Assembly (NCBI GenBank): GCA_023667145.1
Contig: JAMPAQ010000001.1
Coordinates: 1,626,856-1,690,855, forward strand
Source: Pseudoflavonifractor sp.
Lineage (GTDB): Bacteria > Bacteroidota > Bacteroidia > Bacteroidales > Muribaculaceae
DNA length: 64,000 nucleotides
Reading direction: 5' to 3'
The position numbers were made by a program, and so were the translations under genes. Below, piece by piece: positions 21,052-28,753 of this stretch (position 1 is its first letter; the number at the start of each line of letters is the position of its first letter). The notes beneath the pieces are model-generated. The model worked only from the letters and a program-made list of their open reading frames with translations, ran no database searches and was not told the DNA's origin.

Positions 21052-21059
21052 TAATTTTG
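21052..21059 (+). promoter_or_regulatory. -7 box of the hsd operon
   Basis: TAATTTTG fits TAnnTTTG; the start ATG of hsdM is 28 bases further. Divergent transcription with the men operon within 84 bases may create interference between the two. Confidence 0.55.
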
Positions 21060-21086
21060 TATTCCACCAAACATCCATACCCCGTT

Positions 21087-22673
21087 ATGCCAACAGCCAC
21101 ACAACAGAAACAGGAGCTTTTCAAGGCCATCTGGGCCATCGCCGAGGACCTTCGCAACTCGGTCGATGGCTGGGACTTCAAGTCTTACGTCCTCGGCATA
21201 TTGTTCTACCGCTTTATTTCGGAGAACATCACAAACTATATCAACCGTATGCAACGTGAGGCAGGTGATGCCTACTTTGATTATACCTCATTCCCCGATG
21301 AAGAGGCCATTGCTGCCAAGTATGACCTTGTGCGCGAGAAGGGATTCTTCATTCTACCCTCGCAATTATTCTGCAACGTGCGAAAGCGAGCCAAAAATGA
21401 CCCCAATCTAAATGTGACACTCTCTGAAATATTCAAGAGCATTGAGGCATCGGCTGTCGGAACAGAGAGCGAGGATGACCTCAAAGGGCTGTTTGCCGAC
21501 ATTGATGTCAACTCCAACAAGCTCGGAGGCACGGTTGAGAAGCGAAACGAACAGCTCACCAAGATACTCAACAACATCGGCAGCATCGATCTGAGAGGCG
21601 ACTATGAGGATAATCAGATTGACCTTTTTGGCGACGCATACGAATACCTCATGGCGATGTATGCCTCCAATGCCGGAAAGAGCGGGGGCGAATACTATAC
21701 ACCACAGGAAGTCAGCGAACTGCTTGCCCGCATAGTCAGCTACAACCGCCAGTGGGTAAACAAGGTTTACGACCCGGCTTGCGGCTCCGGCTCTTTGCTG
21801 CTTAAATTCGCCAAGATACTTGGTGCTGACAATGTGAAGCAAGGATTCTTCGGACAGGAGTTAAACATCACCACCTACAACCTGTGCCGCATAAACATGT
21901 TCCTCCACAACATCAACTACAATAAGTTTGACATCCACAATGGCGACACTCTGCTTGAGCCATACCATTGGGACGACGAGCCGTTTGACGCGATTGTCAG
22001 CAACCCTCCCTACTCCACCAAGTGGGTCGGTGATGACAACCCCCTGCTCATCAACGACCCCCGCTTTGCGCCTGCCGGAGTGCTCGCGCCCAAGAGCAAG
22101 AGCGACCTCGCTTTCACGATGCACATGCTCGCATGGCTGTCGACCGAGGGTACTGCCGCTATCGTAGAATTTCCCGGGGTGCTTTATCGCGGAGGCAAGG
22201 AGCAAAAGATTCGTCAATATCTGATTGACAACAACTATGTTGACACCGTCATTCAGTTGCCATCAAACCTATTCTTCGGTGTGACCATCGCCACCTGCAT
22301 CATCGTGCTGAAGAAATCGAAGAAAGAGAATAAGACACTGTTTATTGACGCATCGCGGCTCTTTGTCCATGAGGGCAACAAAAACAAGCTGTCGCCCGCG
22401 AACATTGAGGCGATTGTTTCGGAATATGCCAAAAGCAGGGACGCTACAGGTGATGTCCGCGACAAGCACTTCTCTGCGCTCATTGACAACAATACAATTG
22501 CCAAGAACGGCTACAACCTATCCGTCAGCTCCTACGTCGAGGCAGAGGACACCCGCCCGCAGACCGACATCAAGGAACTGAACGCCCGCATTGCCCGCAT
22601 CGTCGAGCGTGAGAACCAACTCCGTGCCGAGATAGACGCCATAATCAAAGAACTTGAAGCCGAAACAGCATGA
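21087..22673 (+). CDS. hsdM: Type I restriction-modification methyltransferase subunit
   Basis: 528 residues from the ATG at 21087 (MPTATQQKQ); an upstream in-frame start would overlap the promoter. An N-terminal helical HsdM domain (1-160) precedes the N6-adenine methyltransferase core with DPACGSG (229-235) and NPPY (306-309). A C-terminal coiled coil (IARIVERENQLRAEIDAIIKELE) probably contacts HsdS. It modifies the bipartite site recognised by HsdS, and with HsdR it forms the restriction complex. The last four bases overlap the ORF6N start. Base composition is similar to the core genes, unlike the AT-richer genes that follow. Confidence 0.93.
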   Translation: MPTATQQKQELFKAIWAIAEDLRNSVDGWDFKSYVLGILFYRFISENITNYINRMQREAGDAYFDYTSFPDEEAIAAKYDLVREKGFFILPSQLFCNVRKRAKNDPNLNVTLSEIFKSIEASAVGTESEDDLKGLFADIDVNSNKLGGTVEKRNEQLTKILNNIGSIDLRGDYEDNQIDLFGDAYEYLMAMYASNAGKSGGEYYTPQEVSELLARIVSYNRQWVNKVYDPACGSGSLLLKFAKILGADNVKQGFFGQELNITTYNLCRINMFLHNINYNKFDIHNGDTLLEPYHWDDEPFDAIVSNPPYSTKWVGDDNPLLINDPRFAPAGVLAPKSKSDLAFTMHMLAWLSTEGTAAIVEFPGVLYRGGKEQKIRQYLIDNNYVDTVIQLPSNLFFGVTIATCIIVLKKSKKENKTLFIDASRLFVHEGNKNKLSPANIEAIVSEYAKSRDATGDVRDKHFSALIDNNTIAKNGYNLSVSSYVEAEDTRPQTDIKELNARIARIVERENQLRAEIDAIIKELEAETA

Positions 22674-23272
22674 AAAATATCATAACATTACCCGAAAACA
22701 TTGGTCCACGACTTATAATGCTACGTAACCAACCCGTATTACTTGACACAGATGTCGCAGTAATATTTGGAGTTGAGACGAAAAGAATTAATGAGGCTGT
22801 GAAGAGAAATATTGAAAAGTTTCCTGATGACTATTTGTTCACTCTTGATAAACAAGAATTTGCAGACTTGAGGTCGCAAAATGCGACCTCAAGTCTCGGA
22901 CATGGTGGGACACGCTACGCGCCTAAAGCCTTTACCGAGAAAGGTCTCTACATGCTCGCAACAATTCTCAAAAGCAAACAAGCTGTTGAAGCCACATTTG
23001 GAATAATCGAAACATATGCACAGGTTCGAGAGCTACAGACCACACTAAAATCATTACATACTAAAAACGGGAATGATAGAACCTTAATGAGCAGGTTCTC
23101 CGAATTGTTATCTAATATTGTCTTACCTGAATTACAACCCGACGAGTCTGAAACATCAATAGAGCTTAACTTCTTCATCGGCAAACTCAAGCACACCGTC
23201 AAGCGCAAACGCCGCGATAATGGTCCCGACATAGTGGAGGAGCCGGAAGTTGAGTATGGCCAAAAAGAATAA
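22670..23272 (+). CDS. ORF6N-domain protein inside the hsd operon
   Basis: 200 residues. The ORF6N (KilA-N-related) DNA-binding domain spans about 10-95 (MLRNQPVLLDTDVAVIFGV, then AVKRNIEKFPDDYLFTL and RYAPKAFTEKGLYMLATIL). A helical and then basic C-terminal part (LKHTVKRKRRDN) follows. ORF6N domains are common in phage proteins and often occur between hsdM and hsdS in Bacteroidetes; the role there is not established. Coupled to hsdM by ATGA. AT-richer than hsdM. A 14-bp perfect hairpin lies inside at 22865-22895, encoding the LRSQNATSS stretch. Confidence 0.82.
   Translation: MKNIITLPENIGPRLIMLRNQPVLLDTDVAVIFGVETKRINEAVKRNIEKFPDDYLFTLDKQEFADLRSQNATSSLGHGGTRYAPKAFTEKGLYMLATILKSKQAVEATFGIIETYAQVRELQTTLKSLHTKNGNDRTLMSRFSELLSNIVLPELQPDESETSIELNFFIGKLKHTVKRKRRDNGPDIVEEPEVEYGQKE
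22865..22895 (+). other. 14-bp perfect hairpin within the ORF6N coding sequence
   Basis: GACTTGAGGTCGCA (22865-22878) and its complement (22882-22895) flank an AAA loop. It lies inside codons for DLRSQNATSSL. In mRNA it would form a strong stem between hsdM and hsdS. Confidence 0.7.
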
Positions 23273-23314: not shown

Positions 23315-24604
23315 ATGAGCAATCTACAAGAACTGATCACCCGTCTCTGCCCCGATGGCGTGCCATTCAAGCCATTGGGAGAAATTGGAACGTTTATACG
23401 TGGCAATGGTCTTCAAAAGAAAGACTTTACCGAAAGTGGTGTCGGCTGTATTCATTACGGTCAAATATACACCCACTATGGTACATTCGCCTCAGAAACA
23501 AAATCATTTATTTCTGAGGCTATGGCAAGAAAATTAAGAAAGGCTCAACCAGGAGACCTTATTATTGCAACTACAAGTGAAAATATCGAGGATGTTTGTA
23601 AGGCAGTTGCATGGGTGGGCAATGAAGAAATTGCCATTAGTAGTGACGCTTTTGTGTTTCATCACACACTAAATCCAAAATATGTAGCATATTTTTTTCA
23701 GACAGAAGATTTTCAATCTCAAAAAAGACCATTTGTAAGCGGAGCAAAAGTAATGCGTCTTTCTGGAGAAAGTCTTGCAAAAATTGTGATTCCTGTGCCG
23801 CCGATTGAGGTACAGGAGGAGATTGTCAGAATTTTGGACACGTTCAGCGCTCACGCAGCGGAGCTGCAAGCGGAGCTGCAAGCGGAGCTGCAAGCACGTA
23901 AAGAGCAATACGAGTATTATCGCAATCTTTTACTCACCTTCAATCCCTCCGCCTCCGGCTGCGGGACCGATGATGAGCAAAAGATAAGTAATCAGGCGGG
24001 AGAAATTACCCCCCCCCATCGGTTAACAGACGTTAAGTGGATGACAATGGGCGAGATTGGGACAGTAAAGATGTGTAAACGGATAATGAAACATCAGACA
24101 TCAAGTAGCGGCGAGATCCCGTTTTATAAAATTGGGACATTTGGTAAAATCGCTGATGCCTATATCTCAAGGGAGCTATATGAAGAATATAAATCAAATT
24201 TATCATTTCCATCAAAAGGTTCAATTCTTATTTCCGCAGCCGGCACCATAGGACGTTGTGTAATATACAATGGAGAGGACGCTTATTTCCAAGACTCCAA
24301 TATTGTGTGGCTTGAAAACGACGAGAGACACATATTAAACAGATTTCTATACTATGTCTATCAGACATTAAATTGGGAAACAGCAGGAGGAACGATAAAG
24401 CGGCTATACAATGACAGGATTGCCGCCACAATCATCCCCATCCCTCCTATGGTGTTGCAAGAAAAGATAGTGGCAATCCTTGACCGCTTCGAGACATTGG
24501 TGAAGGACCTGACAACCGGCTTACCTGCCGAAATCGCCGCCGTTAAGGAGCGCTACGAATATTACCGAAACAAACTATTGACATTCCCTGAAAAATCCGC
24601 ATGA
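23315..24604 (+). CDS. hsdS: Type I restriction-modification specificity subunit
   Basis: 429 residues built as a duplication. TRD1 (from VPFKPLGEIGTF) is followed by central conserved helices (VPPIEVQEEIVRILDTFSA, then RKEQYEYYRNLLLTF). TRD2 (from VKWMTMGEIGTV) is followed by distal helices (IPPMVLQEKIVAILDRFETL, then KERYEYYRNKLLTF). Each TRD should read one half of a split DNA site. Between them lie three AELQ repeats (12-bp tandem units, 23861-23896), which by analogy with EcoR124 set the spacer length. A C9 tract (24009-24017, residues 232-235) follows. TRD1 is AT-rich, consistent with exchange. The stop overlaps the RAYT start (ATGA). Confidence 0.92.
   Translation: MSNLQELITRLCPDGVPFKPLGEIGTFIRGNGLQKKDFTESGVGCIHYGQIYTHYGTFASETKSFISEAMARKLRKAQPGDLIIATTSENIEDVCKAVAWVGNEEIAISSDAFVFHHTLNPKYVAYFFQTEDFQSQKRPFVSGAKVMRLSGESLAKIVIPVPPIEVQEEIVRILDTFSAHAAELQAELQAELQARKEQYEYYRNLLLTFNPSASGCGTDDEQKISNQAGEITPPHRLTDVKWMTMGEIGTVKMCKRIMKHQTSSSGEIPFYKIGTFGKIADAYISRELYEEYKSNLSFPSKGSILISAAGTIGRCVIYNGEDAYFQDSNIVWLENDERHILNRFLYYVYQTLNWETAGGTIKRLYNDRIAATIIPIPPMVLQEKIVAILDRFETLVKDLTTGLPAEIAAVKERYEYYRNKLLTFPEKSA
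23861..23896 (+). repeat. 12-bp tandem repeat in the hsdS central spacer
   Basis: Three copies of GAGCTGCAAGCG (last copy ends in A) encode AELQ repeats between the two target-recognition domains. Copy number change would keep the frame and alter the distance between the TRDs. Confidence 0.9.
24009..24017 (+). repeat. C9 homopolymer in hsdS
   Basis: Nine consecutive C encode T-P-P-H at the start of the second half of HsdS. With eight C the reading frame meets TAA three codons later (ATC GGT TAA); with ten C it meets TAA within about seven codons. Such tracts are typical slipped-strand sites. Confidence 0.85.
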
Positions 24605-25320
24605 CCGACAAAAACAACGGCTGCACCGGGGTGCAGCCCTACAATAAACCCGAAAATCCACAACCCAACGTGGGGTTGCACCCTGCCAACGTAGGGCTGC
24701 ACCCCGGTGCAGCCGAAACCCGACAAACGCCACCTCCTGCCAACGTAGGGCTGCACCCCGGTGCAGCCGCAACCCAACAAACGCCACTCCCCGCCAACGT
24801 AGGGCTGCACACCGGTGCAGCCGCCATTACAGGTGCAACCGCGTTGCCGCAACGGAAAAATATTCGCGCCGAATTCCACGATTATTCTGGTGGGGATTAC
24901 TTCATCACAATATGTACCCGTGACAAGGAGCATTACTTTGGTAAAATCATTAATGACGAGATGATTTATACACAAATCGGAAATGAAGCCAAAAGAAGTC
25001 TGGAAACCCTTGCCTCACATTACGGTTACGTTGAAGTGCCTGTGTTTGTGATTATGCCTAATCATGTTCATACGATAATTTGCATACGCGAATCTGCGGA
25101 TGCACCAGAGAGCTTTCCTACAATTCGGACAGCGCTTGGTGTTGTGGTTGGAGGTTACAAGCAGGCGGTGACTCGGTTTGCCCGTCGAAACAATATTGAG
25201 TTTGGATGGCAATCGCGCTACAACGACCATATCATACGTGACTCTCGTGATGGCAATCAAATTGCCGAATATATTGAAAATAACGTGGCCCGATGGGCAA
25301 ATGATTGCTTTTATGATTGA
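24601..25320 (+). CDS. REP-associated tyrosine transposase (RAYT, Y1/HUH) with REP-encoded N-terminal extension
   Basis: 239 residues. The catalytic domain spans about 84-239: YFITICTRDKEHYFG, the HUH motif MPNHVH (His155, His157), a candidate nucleophile Tyr186 in GGYKQAVTRFARR, and the RAYT-typical WQSRYNDHIIRD. The domain looks intact. Residues 1-80 are unusual: they are translated from GTAG-headed palindromes and read as repeats of NVGLHPGAA plus a Pro/Thr linker. The ATG overlaps the hsdS stop and its stop overlaps the hsdR ATG, so the gene is embedded in the R-M operon. RAYTs bind and nick REP hairpins with a 5' GTAG; the matching repeats are found here and in hsdR. Confidence 0.88.
   Translation: MTDKNNGCTGVQPYNKPENPQPNVGLHPANVGLHPGAAETRQTPPPANVGLHPGAAATQQTPLPANVGLHTGAAAITGATALPQRKNIRAEFHDYSGGDYFITICTRDKEHYFGKIINDEMIYTQIGNEAKRSLETLASHYGYVEVPVFVIMPNHVHTIICIRESADAPESFPTIRTALGVVVGGYKQAVTRFARRNNIEFGWQSRYNDHIIRDSRDGNQIAEYIENNVARWANDCFYD
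24619..24822 (+). repeat. REP-like palindrome array inside the RAYT gene
   Basis: The unit is GTAG followed by the 20-base palindrome GGCTGCACCCCGGTGCAGCC. Units: 24619-24638 (reverse orientation, its GTAG on the minus strand), a truncated copy near 24670-24683, then 24695-24714, 24749-24768 and 24803-24822, exactly 54 bases apart. All are in frame with the transposase and have no stop codons. Confidence 0.92.
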
Positions 25321-28300
25321 CAAAAACAACGGCTGCACCGGGGTGCAGTCCTACAATAAACCCGAAAATCCACAACCCAACGTGGGGATGCACCCCGGTG
25401 CTGCCGAAACCCAACACATGCCGCACCCCGCCAACGTAGGGCTGCACTCTGGTGCAGCCGCTGCCCAACACACGCCTCTCCCTGCCAACGTAGGGCTGCA
25501 CCCCGGTGCAGCCGCAACCCAACAAACACCGCCCCCCGCCAATGTAGGGCTGCACCCCGGTGCAGCCGCTAAATACGAGATGGTGTCGGAAAATCCCGAA
25601 TCGACGGTCGTTGCCGAGTTTGAGCCGGGTTATTACAGTGCGGCGCAGTATCAGAGCGAGGCCGAGATGGAGCGTGACTTCATCAAACGGCTTACTCGCC
25701 AAGCCTACGAATATCTGACTATCAATTCGGAAAAGGATTTGATAGCCAACCTCCGCCACCAAATCGAACGGCTCAACAATATCATTTTTGAAGATAAAGA
25801 GTGGGCCGATTTCTTCAACGAATTTATCGGCAACCCCAACATGGGTATCGTTGAGAAGACAAGGACAATACAGGAGGACAACGTCAAGGCGTGGACACGC
25901 CCCGACAGCTCCATAGTCAACATCTCGCTTATTGACAAGGCCAACATCCACAACAACTCTCTCCAAGTCATCAACCAGTATGAGGTTGTAGGGCTGCACC
26001 ATGGTGCAGCCGAGGATAACGCATCAAAATTCACAAACCGTTATGATGTGACCATACTCGTCAACGGTCTGCCGCTCGTCCATGTCGAATTGAAGAAACG
26101 CGGAGTCAGCATCAAGGATGCCTTCAACCAGATTGACCGCTATCAACGTGACTCGTTCTGGGCCGGCAGCGGCCTCTATGAGTTCGTACAAATCTTCGTA
26201 ATCTCCAACGGTACACTGACCAAATATTACAGCAACACCACCCGCGATGCCGTAGCCAAATCCACCCCAAAAGTAGGGATACACCCCAGTGCATCCGCCA
26301 AAAGCAAGAAGCAAACCTCCAACTCTTTTGAGTTTACTTCCTACTGGGCAACCAAGGATAACACGCCAATCTACGACCTTACCGACTTCACTCAGACGTT
26401 CTTCTCAAAGCATACCCTACTCAACATCCTGACAAAATACTGCGTATTCACGTCAGAGAATCTGCTGCTTGTGATGCGCCCGTATCAAATAGCCGCCACC
26501 GAGGAAATTCTGCTACGTATCAAAACCTCCACCAACGCTAAGACATACGGCAAACGTGAGGGCGGTGGCTACGTATGGCATACAACAGGCTCCGGCAAGA
26601 CCCTCACATCATTCAAAACCGCACGGCTTGCATCGCGGCTCGATGAGATAGCCAAAGTCCTTTTTGTCGTCGACCGCAAAGACCTTGACTATCAGACCAT
26701 GAAAGAGTATGACCGCTTTGAGAAAGGCGCGGCCAACTCAAACGGTTCTACCGCCGTGCTGAAAAAGCAGCTCGATGACCCGAACGCCCGAATAATCATC
26801 ACCACTATTCAGAAGCTCTCCAATTTCATAGCCCGCAATCCGCAGCATAAAGTATACAATCAACATACGGTACTTATTTTTGACGAGTGTCACCGCTCGC
26901 AGTTTGGCGATATGCACAAGGCCATCACCAAGAAATTCAAGAAATATCACATGTTCGGTTTTACGGGCACACCGATATTTCCCGACAATGCCGGAGCAAT
27001 CCGTAATGTTGAGTTCACGACCACAGAAGGTGCGTTTGGCGACCAACTCCACAGCTATACGATAGTGGATGCCATCCGCGACCAAAACGTGTTGCCGTTT
27101 AAGGTTGACTACATCCGTACCATGCGCGAGGAAGATGAGATACTCGATGAACAAGTGAACAACATCGACCGTGAGCGGGCACTGATGGCCCCTGAGCGCA
27201 TCACATTGGTGTCTAAATACATCATGGAACACTTCGCACAGAAAACTCGCCGTGATGCACGCAGCTACACCTTCTCCCGAATAATCAATGTCAGCGAAGT
27301 AGCCCGCGCCCGCAATGTAGGGGTACACCCTGGTGCAGCCGCTATTAAGGAAGTCAAATCAAAAACACGACTCACAGGCTTCAACTCTATCTTCGCAGTC
27401 GCCTCCATCCCGTTTGTCAAACTATATTATACAGAGTTGCAGAGACAAAATGCCCTGCTGCCGCCCGACAAGCGGCTGAAAATCGCGACAATCTTCAGCT
27501 ATGCGCCCAACGCCGACATCGAGGACGAGTCGCCCGAGGACACCGATGGACTCGACCAGTCGAGCCGCGACTTCCTCGAAAAATGTATTGCCGACTACAA
27601 CGCCATGTTCGGCACAAGCTACGACACTTCTGCTGACAAATTCCAAAGCTATTACAAAGACCTGTCACTCCGCATGAAAAATCGCGAGGTCGACATGCTC
27701 ATAGTCGTCAACATGTTTCTGACAGGCTTTGACGCGACAACGCTCAACACGCTATGGGTTGACAAGAACCTGCGATACCACGGGTTGCTGCAAGCCTACT
27801 CGCGCACCAATCGCATACTCAATCCCATCAAGGATCATGGCAATATCGTGAGCTTCCGCAACCTCGAAAAAGCCACAAACGACTGTCTCCAACTGTTTGG
27901 CAACAAACACGCCTCGGGCCTGATAATGCTGAAGACTTTTGATGACTATTTCTTCGGTTATGACGATGAGCCGGGCAAGCATCATCCCGGATGGAAAGAA
28001 TTGATTGAGGAACTGCTTGCCAAATTTCCTCTTGGCTCTCCGATACTTGGAGAAACCGCCGAGAAAGAGTTTATCAAACTCTTCGGCACAATTCTTCGTG
28101 CGCACAACATCCTCGTGACCTTCGATGAATTTGCCGGTAATCATATCATCTCTGATGATGATTTTGTCGATTACCGTGGCTTCTATAATGAACTGCATGA
28201 TAAATACCGCCCTAAGAAAGGTGAGTTGACAAACATCAATGACGACCTTGTCTTTGAGATGGAGCTGATGAAGTCGATTGAGATTAACATCGATTACATC

Positions 28301-28753
28301 TTGTTTCTTGTCAGCCAACTTGACGGCAACGAGAATCATGACCGCGAGATTGTCATCAAGGCCATCAAGTCGGTACAGGCATCCCCCGACCTACGCGACA
28401 AGGAAGAACTCATCCGCGAGTTTATCGAGCGGCATACACCCGGCAACGATGTGCACGACCATTGGGCAGAATATGTGCGTGCCTCCCAACGCTCGCAGAT
28501 TGAGGATATAATAGCGAACGAAAATCTCCGGCGCGACAAGACCCTCACTTTTATGAGCCAATCGTTCCGTGACGGCGCGATCATGGCAAACGGCACAGCC
28601 ATCGCCGAGATATTGCCGCCGATGGGACTCTTTGGCGGAGCGGGTCGGCGACGTGCCGAAAAGAAGAAGACAGTCATCGCCCGTCTGAGAGAATTTTTTG
28701 AGCGATTCTACGACATCTCGGGTGGAGAGTTTTACGGCGCTGACAACATGTGA
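25313..28753 (+). CDS. hsdR: Type I restriction-modification endonuclease/translocase subunit with REP-encoded insertions
   Basis: 1146 residues from the ATG at 25313, which overlaps the RAYT stop; a later ATG at 25580 (MVSENPES) may be the ancestral start. The nuclease PD-(D/E)xK motif is Asp245 (YDVTILVNG) with E259-L-K261. The translocase has Walker A HTTGSGKT (Lys429), DECHRSQ (Asp524), GFTGTPIF and an AYSRTNR motif VI, then a helical C-terminal part that contacts the methylase. Residues about 5-86 come from a REP-like array, and single REP-encoded peptides (VGLHHGAA, VGIHPSAS, VGVHPGAA) interrupt the body near residues 227, 322 and 670. The core motifs are intact, so the insertions appear tolerated. 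Confidence 0.92.
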   Translation: MIDKNNGCTGVQSYNKPENPQPNVGMHPGAAETQHMPHPANVGLHSGAAAAQHTPLPANVGLHPGAAATQQTPPPANVGLHPGAAAKYEMVSENPESTVVAEFEPGYYSAAQYQSEAEMERDFIKRLTRQAYEYLTINSEKDLIANLRHQIERLNNIIFEDKEWADFFNEFIGNPNMGIVEKTRTIQEDNVKAWTRPDSSIVNISLIDKANIHNNSLQVINQYEVVGLHHGAAEDNASKFTNRYDVTILVNGLPLVHVELKKRGVSIKDAFNQIDRYQRDSFWAGSGLYEFVQIFVISNGTLTKYYSNTTRDAVAKSTPKVGIHPSASAKSKKQTSNSFEFTSYWATKDNTPIYDLTDFTQTFFSKHTLLNILTKYCVFTSENLLLVMRPYQIAATEEILLRIKTSTNAKTYGKREGGGYVWHTTGSGKTLTSFKTARLASRLDEIAKVLFVVDRKDLDYQTMKEYDRFEKGAANSNGSTAVLKKQLDDPNARIIITTIQKLSNFIARNPQHKVYNQHTVLIFDECHRSQFGDMHKAITKKFKKYHMFGFTGTPIFPDNAGAIRNVEFTTTEGAFGDQLHSYTIVDAIRDQNVLPFKVDYIRTMREEDEILDEQVNNIDRERALMAPERITLVSKYIMEHFAQKTRRDARSYTFSRIINVSEVARARNVGVHPGAAAIKEVKSKTRLTGFNSIFAVASIPFVKLYYTELQRQNALLPPDKRLKIATIFSYAPNADIEDESPEDTDGLDQSSRDFLEKCIADYNAMFGTSYDTSADKFQSYYKDLSLRMKNREVDMLIVVNMFLTGFDATTLNTLWVDKNLRYHGLLQAYSRTNRILNPIKDHGNIVSFRNLEKATNDCLQLFGNKHASGLIMLKTFDDYFFGYDDEPGKHHPGWKELIEELLAKFPLGSPILGETAEKEFIKLFGTILRAHNILVTFDEFAGNHIISDDDFVDYRGFYNELHDKYRPKKGELTNINDDLVFEMELMKSIEINIDYILFLVSQLDGNENHDREIVIKAIKSVQASPDLRDKEELIREFIERHTPGNDVHDHWAEYVRASQRSQIEDIIANENLRRDKTLTFMSQSFRDGAIMANGTAIAEILPPMGLFGGAGRRRAEKKKTVIARLREFFERFYDISGGEFYGADNM
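25331..25567 (+). repeat. REP-like palindrome array at the 5' end of hsdR
   Basis: One reverse-oriented unit (25331-25350), then four direct units at 25386, 25440, 25494 and 25548 with an exact 54-base period. All are in frame. The peptide repeat is NVGLHPGAA followed by a nine-residue Ala/Thr/Gln/Pro linker. The first about 80 bases nearly match the 5' end of the RAYT gene. Confidence 0.92.
25988..26011 (+). repeat. Single REP-like unit within hsdR
   Basis: GTAG plus the palindrome GGCTGCACCATGGTGCAGCC, translated as VGLHHGAA between the N-terminal helices and the nuclease core. Confidence 0.85.
26273..26296 (+). repeat. Single REP-like unit within hsdR (diverged)
   Basis: GTAG plus GGATACACCCCAGTGCATCC, an imperfect palindrome, translated as VGIHPSAS and followed by a Lys/Ser-rich stretch. 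Confidence 0.75.
27317..27340 (+). repeat. Single REP-like unit within hsdR (third)
   Basis: GTAG plus GGGTACACCCTGGTGCAGCC, imperfect palindrome, translated as VGVHPGAA in the middle of the translocase domain. Confidence 0.78.

What the first reader, a model, noticed from the sequence alone, without database searches (positions are those of the whole stretch)
24601..25567. RAYT transposase inside a Type I R-M operon, with its REP-like repeats translated in frame
Between hsdS and hsdR lies an intact RAYT (HUH MPNHVH, Tyr186, WQSRYNDHIIRD). Its 5' end and that of hsdR are made of GTAG-headed 20-base palindromes with an exact 54-base (18-codon) period, in frame and stop-free. RAYTs are known to recognise GTAG-headed REP hairpins, but REPs are normally intergenic. 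Here they are amplified inside two coding regions and produce the peptide NVGLHPGAA plus a Pro-rich linker. This may be a domesticated or coding-tolerant REP/RAYT system in which spread of a repeat extends the N-termini of restriction proteins. I know of no described example.
Basis: partly seen in the sequence, partly recalled or inferred. Interest (0 to 1): 0.88.

Follow-up and report, generated by a model that had tools for sequence, protein, structure and literature searches.

The report
REP transposase inside restriction-modification operon
A bacterial transposase-like gene and the short DNA hairpins it is thought to spread have settled inside an antiviral restriction operon and are read through as protein; the hairpins-in-genes part is already known, but the survey made here suggests that such transposases turn up just before the DNA-cutting gene of restriction operons again and again across Bacteroidota, which appears to be undescribed.

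Summary
An intact RAYT gene (24601-25320) lies between hsdS and hsdR, overlapping both. GTAG-headed palindromes with an exact 54-bp period are read in frame in the RAYT and in hsdR. Tyr186 is wrong: the conserved Tyr is Y224.

The REP/RAYT biology is mostly known. In-frame intragenic REPs (PMC3733652) and in-frame REPs inside RAYT genes of Bacteroidetes (subclass 2.4, PMC6006769) are published. The genome carries about 85 related REP hits and only this one intact RAYT, so this is an ordinary REP population whose RAYT sits in an R-M operon. REPs also lie in frame, three times, in a second helicase gene.

What looks new is the location. A second species has hsdS-RAYT-hsdR. Among 80 Bacteroidota RAYTs (one per genome), 10 lie in type I or III R-M operons, all co-directional, nine of them upstream of the R gene with at most one gene between. 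On the RAYT tree they are scattered, so there were many independent arrivals. Whether this reflects target preference, tolerance or function is open. HsdR remains under purifying selection. Translation from the upstream starts is likely, not proven.

The parts
21057..22673 (+). hsdM, type I methyltransferase subunit
   Evidence: N6_Mtase E 1e-110, HsdM_N
22670..23272 (+). ORF6N-domain accessory gene inside the R-M operon
   Evidence: PF10543 E 2e-30
23315..24604 (+). hsdS, specificity subunit
   Evidence: Methylase_S E 7e-40
24601..25320 (+). RAYT (TnpA_REP) ORF, 239 aa; ATGA overlap with the hsdS stop
   Evidence: NF047646 REP_Tyr_transpos E 4e-15; Y1_Tnp; folded core residues ~86-235, residues 1-84 disordered
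25054..25071 (+). MPNHVH, HUH motif (residues 152-157)
   Evidence: M152, P153, N154, H155 and H157 invariant in 30 RAYTs
25270..25272 (+). conserved, presumed catalytic Tyr224 (YIENN)
   Evidence: invariant in 30 RAYTs; fits the Y motif of subclass 2.4 (PMC6006769)
24619..24642 (-). REP in inverted orientation, translated as GCTGVQPY
   Evidence: 0 mismatches; with 24691-24714 it folds into one long hairpin, z -9.2
24691..24714 (+). REP, RAYT array unit 1
   Evidence: hairpin -15.6 kcal/mol
24745..24768 (+). REP, RAYT array unit 2
24799..24822 (+). REP, RAYT array unit 3
25098..25121 (-). decayed REP inside the RAYT between HUH and Tyr
   Evidence: aligns with the intact internal REP of L138/L094 and other relatives at the same site
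24607..24683 (+). leader plus first REPs, duplicated at 25319-25395
   Evidence: 95% identity over 83 nt; no other copy of the leader in the genome
25313..28753 (+). hsdR, 1146 aa, from the ATG that overlaps the RAYT stop
   Evidence: TIGR00348 547 bits; EcoR124I HsdR 2w00 E 2e-245; dN/dS ~0.05
25331..25354 (-). REP in inverted orientation at the hsdR 5' end
   Evidence: 1 mismatch
25382..25405 (+). REP, hsdR array unit 1
   Evidence: 3 mismatches
25436..25459 (+). REP, hsdR array unit 2
25490..25513 (+). REP, hsdR array unit 3
25544..25567 (+). REP, hsdR array unit 4, joined to the native HsdR N-terminus (AAKYEMVSENPEST)
25988..26011 (+). single in-frame REP (VGLHHGAA) in the nuclease domain, in the loop before NRYD
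26273..26296 (+). single in-frame REP (VGIHPSAS), partly decayed
   Evidence: hairpin weakened
27317..27340 (+). single in-frame REP (VGVHPGAA), hairpin lost

Best explanation
This is a REPtron (a RAYT gene with its GTAG REPs) lodged in the hsdS-hsdR junction of a type I R-M operon of a Muribaculaceae-like bacterium. The RAYT is the only intact one in the assembly and very likely the enzyme that spreads the genome's ~85 REPs. REP copies that land in coding sequence survive only if the frame stays open and the site is a tolerant loop. This filter explains the in-frame REPs in the RAYT 5' end, the hsdR 5' end and three HsdR loops. The 5' leader with its REP pair was copied from the RAYT start to the hsdR start. 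Both arrays then grew in 54-bp steps (18 codons), by slippage or unequal recombination, so frame was never lost. Shown: anatomy, absence from relatives, purifying selection, genome-wide REP population, single intact RAYT, recurrence of RAYTs in R-M operons. Inferred: RAYT-mediated spread, array growth mechanism, translation from the upstream ATGs, and that most of this is tolerated rather than selected.
For: 85 REP matches genome-wide with 0 for the reversed control; one intact RAYT, one fragment at C11:1266594, and three PF01797 genes that do not match the RAYT model. Internal and N-terminal REPs absent from every HsdR orthologue aligned, 59-89% identical for all but a 45% one, REP sites at positions of variable length. 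Same pattern in a second gene: three in-frame REPs in a ResIII helicase, absent from 14 homologues. HsdR dN/dS 0.04-0.06 against the nearest orthologues. RAYT relatives carry REPs right after the start codon; in eight of them (L039, L138, L139, L141, L143, L144, L146, L148) no ATG/GTG/TTG lies between REP and core, so the REP must be translated if standard starts are used. Array differences fall on third codon positions more than chance (Fisher p 0.009; linker alone 0.024). Junction hsdS-RAYT-hsdR also in L094/L138; a broken REP of the same type in the same junction of L104, which has no RAYT.
Against: Translation may start downstream: TTG 24844 for the RAYT, ATG 25580 for HsdR, making the arrays 5' leaders; PMC3733652 argues this for many N-terminal REPs. 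No second strain of this species is available to show change in array copy number. That the RAYT moves these REPs is inferred from the literature. The window's HsdR branch carries more amino acid change than its neighbours (computed: ~0.054 against 0.017 and 0.026), so slight relaxation is possible.
Confidence: 0.78

Rival explanations
1. Functional recruitment: RAYT/REP cassettes are recurrently kept just upstream of the restriction gene because they help the R-M system, either by hairpins and coupled translation that hold down or delay R relative to M and S, or because the HUH nuclease acts as an accessory factor.
For: 10 of 80 Bacteroidota RAYTs lie in R-M operons, all co-directional, 9 of 10 upstream of R with at most one gene between; scattered on the RAYT tree (11 changes for 12 rows, shuffled mean 11.5), so convergent; catalytic motifs intact in all ten; a mod-RAYT-mod-res order in a Monoglobus plasmid, another phylum; long REP-pair hairpin 17 nt after the RAYT start codon, z -9.2.
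Against: The nearest HsdR orthologues do well without RAYT. The junction also takes up other genes (four-helix-bundle-like protein, RhuM-like protein), so it may simply be permissive. RAYTs generally sit between co-directional genes (43 of 80). No expression or phenotype data. No RAYT match in PADLOC.
Confidence: 0.2
2. The arrays are untranslated 5' leaders: HsdR starts at ATG 25580 and RAYT at TTG 24844, and the open frame across the repeats is accidental because the unit is GC-rich and open in several frames.
For: Those start codons exist and HsdR orthologues start at that position; the array is open in antisense frames too.
Against: Does not explain the three internal HsdR REPs, which must be translated. 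The start codons overlapping the preceding stop are kept at 24601 and 25313, and in L094 at the equivalent places. Third-position bias in the array. RAYT relatives with no alternative start.
Confidence: 0.2
3. The R-M operon is decaying and its hsdR tolerates repeats because it is no longer used.
For: Seven REPs plus an inverted copy in one gene; somewhat elevated amino acid change on this branch.
Against: No stops or frameshifts over 1146 codons; all domains present; dN/dS 0.04-0.06; hsdM, hsdS and RAYT intact.
Confidence: 0.08

Closest known systems
RAYT / TnpA_REP subclass 2.4 (Quentin et al. 2018, PMC6006769)
   Same: HUH motif NHVH, WQ, YIxNN motif; found in Bacteroidetes; GTAG REPs around the gene; REPs inserted in frame in the RAYT gene between HUH and Tyr, as in the relatives here
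   Different: P of YIxNNP is V; REPs also in frame right after the start codon and amplified as a 54-bp direct array; the gene lies in an R-M operon, a context on which that paper is silent ('restriction' occurs 0 times)
Intragenic GTAG/CGTC REPs (PMC3733652)
   Same: REPs inside ORFs in frame, single or clustered, up to 43-82 aa, often in genes for DNA-acting proteins
   Different: Here four separate sites in one hsdR, next to the RAYT itself, with the leader copied from the RAYT 5' end
Rickettsia palindromic elements (RPE), cited in PMC3733652
   Same: Palindromic repeats inserted in frame in functional genes
   Different: Different sequence; the window's repeats are GTAG REPs with a RAYT, while PMC3733652 groups RPE-4 and RPE-6 with CGTC repeats, which it found not associated with transposase genes
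Type I R-M of EcoR124I type (HsdR 2w00)
   Same: HsdM/HsdS/HsdR with HSDR_N, SWI2/SNF2 motor and EcoR124_C domains
   Different: RAYT between S and R; REP insertions in N-terminus and loops

Membership tests
RAYT / TnpA_REP | HUH motif and single conserved Tyr of the Y1 fold | tested here: met
   N154-H155-x-H157 and Y224 invariant in 30 relatives; confident core fold
RAYT / TnpA_REP | Profile score over the curated cut-off (NF047646, 80 bits; Y1_Tnp 23 bits) | tested here: inconclusive
   NF047646 58 bits, E 9e-16, under cut-off; Y1_Tnp 21.2, 23.2 with its neighbours in the frame
RAYT / TnpA_REP | Flanked by GTAG REPs in opposite orientations; low copy number | tested here: met
   REPs 24619(-), 24691(+), 25331(-), 25382(+); one intact copy
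RAYT subclass 2.4 | NH[IFV]H, WQ, YIxNNP motifs | tested here: inconclusive
   NHVH and WQ met; YIENNV has V for P
RAYT subclass 2.4 | In-frame REP inside the gene between HUH and Tyr | tested here: met
   intact in 13 of 31 family RAYTs at core+256 to 274 nt; decayed in the window
RAYT / TnpA_REP | Binding, cleavage or spread of REPs | not testable with these tools
   needs biochemistry
REP element | GTAG at the foot of a 20-40 bp palindrome, many copies per genome | tested here: met
   85 hits, control 0; hairpin -15.6 kcal/mol
REP element | Extragenic location | tested here: not met
   internal hsdR and helicase copies are coding; exceptions of this kind are published (PMC3733652)
Type I R-M system | hsdM, hsdS and hsdR with their domains | tested here: met
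Type I R-M system | Restriction and modification activity | not testable with these tools
   indirect: dN/dS 0.04-0.06

The most novel reading that the evidence does not exclude
RAYT/REP cassettes are a recurrent working part of type I and III R-M operons: acquired many times independently just upstream of the R gene, where the REP hairpins and/or the HUH nuclease tune or assist restriction. This would give RAYTs, whose benefit to the host is unknown, a role in defence.
Probability: 0.2. Interest if true: 0.88.

Novelty: new variant of a known kind. Interest (0 to 1): 0.62.

Why it matters
RAYTs are single-copy 'domesticated' transposases kept in bacteria for unknown reasons. A repeated, convergent placement directly before restriction genes gives a concrete hypothesis about their value or their insertion preference that can be tested with deletion strains. 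The window also shows one gene hit at four separate sites by its neighbour's repeats while staying under purifying selection, a clear case of a mobile repeat adding protein sequence.

Tried and rejected
Copies in viral contigs: none for HsdR or RAYT. Plasmids and phages: distant RAYTs only. Single origin of the two hsdS-RAYT-hsdR junctions: HsdR of window + L094 as a clade is rejected (p 9e-63), RAYT window + L138 is not rejected (p 0.34), so one joint insertion inherited with hsdR is unlikely; two insertions or exchange of the junction remain. RAYTs in R-M operons as one specialised clade: rejected by the tree. R-M RAYTs lacking flanking REPs: 4 of 10 against 35 of 70 have them, no difference. 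Rotation test inside the 20-kb loci is weak (400 bp: 6 observed, mean 2.7, 87 of 3000; 1 kb: 369 of 3000), because it conditions on an R-M operon being in the stretch; the argument rests on gene order and background density. HsdR fold: low confidence (pLDDT 58), not used; the loop statement rests on alignments. Bertels 2017 (PMC5581495), the RAYT classification paper, was not readable, so a mention of R-M context there cannot be excluded.
Full report
WHAT IS THERE. The window lies in a 2.62-Mb assembly (G000, contig C11). The family is inferred to be Muribaculaceae from the names of the closest HsdR relatives, such as Heminiphilus faecis and Candidatus Amulumruptor. The operon reads hsdM (21057-22673), an ORF6N gene (22670-23272), hsdS (23315-24604), RAYT (24601-25320) and hsdR (25313-28753), all on the + strand. 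The RAYT start codon overlaps the hsdS stop (ATGA); the first ATG of hsdR overlaps the RAYT stop by 8 nt. Eleven copies within 3 mismatches stand against none in shuffles. Both arrays begin with an inverted REP, and the RAYT leader is copied at the hsdR start (95% over 83 nt; the leader has no other copy in the genome).

The conserved Tyr is Y224, not Tyr186. hsdR holds three further single REPs in frame at 25988, 26273 and 27317. In every orthologue aligned (59-89% identical, apart from one 45% relative) the REPs are absent, and REP-free HsdRs start at the equivalent of ...AAKYEMVSENPEST. The sites have variable length among orthologues. The RAYT itself holds a decayed REP (25098-25121) at the place where relatives carry an intact one.

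GENOME-WIDE REPS. A pattern scan of the own genome gave 85 REP hits within 2 mismatches and none for the reversed control. Most of the other copies are inverted pairs 49-56 nt apart. The genome has one intact RAYT; the other RAYT match is a fragment, and the other PF01797 genes do not match the RAYT model. A second gene, a ResIII-domain helicase on contig C22, has three in-frame REPs absent from all 14 homologues aligned. So coding-tolerant REPs are general in this genome.

IS IT TRANSLATED AND FUNCTIONAL? The internal HsdR REPs must be translated if the protein is made. For the N-terminal arrays there is a possible later start (TTG 24844, ATG 25580). Favouring the upstream starts: the overlaps with the preceding stop codons, the same arrangement in L094, eight RAYT relatives with no ATG/GTG/TTG after the REP, and a third-codon-position bias in array differences (10 of 18 third positions against 7 of 36 others, p 0.009; the units share descent, so this is suggestive only). 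HsdR has dN/dS 0.055 and 0.039 against its two nearest orthologues. The RAYT model shows a confident core and a disordered REP-encoded N-terminus. The REP pair after the RAYT start can fold into one long RNA hairpin (z -9.2); an effect on translation is inference.

RAYT RELATIVES. In 13 of 31 family RAYTs an intact REP sits inside the gene at core+256 to 274 nt, on the minus strand. It matches the REPs flanking the same gene better than those of other loci (mean distance 1.7 against 4.5; 0 of 10000 permutations; shared ancestry not removed). In-gene REPs of subclass 2.4 are already described (PMC6006769); the matching with the flanking REPs may be an addition.

RAYTS IN R-M OPERONS. L094/L138 (G317; Muribaculaceae RGIG8609) also has hsdS-RAYT-hsdR (RAYT 78%, HsdR 79% identity). 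HsdR of L104 (86-88% identity) has no RAYT, but a broken REP of the same type lies in the same junction. The HsdR tree rejects window + L094 as sisters, so a single insertion inherited with hsdR is unlikely. A distant RAYT in a Monoglobus plasmid lies in a mod-RAYT-mod-res locus, which prompted a survey: 80 Bacteroidota RAYTs, one per genome, taken by profile score, with up to 20 kb around each. Ten lie in R-M operons, confirmed by Pfam domains for the R and S or Mod genes in nine and by HsdM/HsdR similarity for L256. Orders: S-RAYT-R in L182, L200, L204 and L234; S-RAYT-x-R in L195 and L197; RAYT directly before R in L233 and L256; M-RAYT-S-x-R in L219; type III mod-RAYT-res in L220. All ten are co-directional. 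R-M coverage is 4.1% and 3.4% at 0-2 and 2-4 kb from the RAYT, and 0.5%, 0.9% and 0% beyond. Two more pairs appear from the coordinates (G765: C16 and C11). Rough expectation (my calculation): even with seven hsdR per genome of 2,000 genes, fewer than one of 80 RAYTs should have hsdR among the next two genes; eight do. The label is not clustered on the RAYT tree (11 changes for 12 rows), so arrivals were independent. Catalytic motifs are intact in all ten, and eight carry the in-gene REP.

MECHANISM. Most likely: RAYTs and REPs enter junctions between co-directional genes (43 of 80 RAYTs have co-directional neighbours on both sides). The S-R junction, which also takes up other accessory genes, is a favoured or permissive place. 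REPs spread locally, and selection for an intact HsdR keeps only in-frame copies in loops. Array growth in 54-bp steps is frame-neutral. A selected role in controlling or assisting restriction is possible but untested.

WHAT IS KNOWN. In-frame intragenic REPs: PMC3733652. In-frame REPs in RAYTs: PMC6006769. RAYTs as domesticated transposases of unknown benefit: PMC8266576. No held paper joined RAYT or TnpA_REP with R-M operons (PMC6006769 and PMC8266576 contain the word 'restriction' 0 times). Bertels 2017 could not be read.

Noticed in passing
G000:C22:1298-3784 (L034:1-2487, minus strand): ResIII-domain helicase (over 829 aa) with three in-frame REPs in loops, absent from 14 homologues: a second REP-decorated DNA-acting gene.
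   Followed up: yes
L178:4998-5363 (Monoglobus pectinilyticus plasmid NZ_OY725736.1): RAYT-like transposase between two site-specific DNA methyltransferase genes, with a RhuM gene and helicases nearby: an R-M locus with a RAYT in another phylum.
   Followed up: partly
L182, L195, L197, L200, L204, L219, L220, L233, L234, L256: RAYTs inside type I and III R-M operons of diverse Bacteroidota, usually just upstream of the R gene.
   Followed up: yes
L138-L144, L146, L148, L150 (Muribaculaceae RAYTs): REP inside the RAYT coding sequence at a constant site whose sequence tracks the REPs flanking the same gene.
   Followed up: partly
L104:4879-4960: RAYT-less hsdS-hsdR junction with an ATGACC leader and a broken REP of the same type, possibly the scar of a lost RAYT.
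   Followed up: partly
G000 C11:1009265, 1188632, 1364081, 1567105, 1697926; C28:241 (L018, L117, L122, L132): Family of ORFs of ~350-535 aa with no Pfam match (four scanned), 21 matching stretches in the own genome, several with in-frame REPs at similar places; unknown.
   Followed up: no
L145:1483-2520 (minus strand): RAYT with a 346-aa ORF whose N-terminal half is made of six alternating in-frame REPs.
   Followed up: no
hsdS-hsdR junctions in L092, L098, L099, L103: The same junction holds a small conserved gene (looks like a four-helix-bundle protein; family not tested) in place of the RAYT: the junction is an accessory-gene slot.
   Followed up: partly
window 24619-24714: REP pair just after the RAYT start can form one long RNA hairpin, possibly limiting translation.
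   Followed up: no
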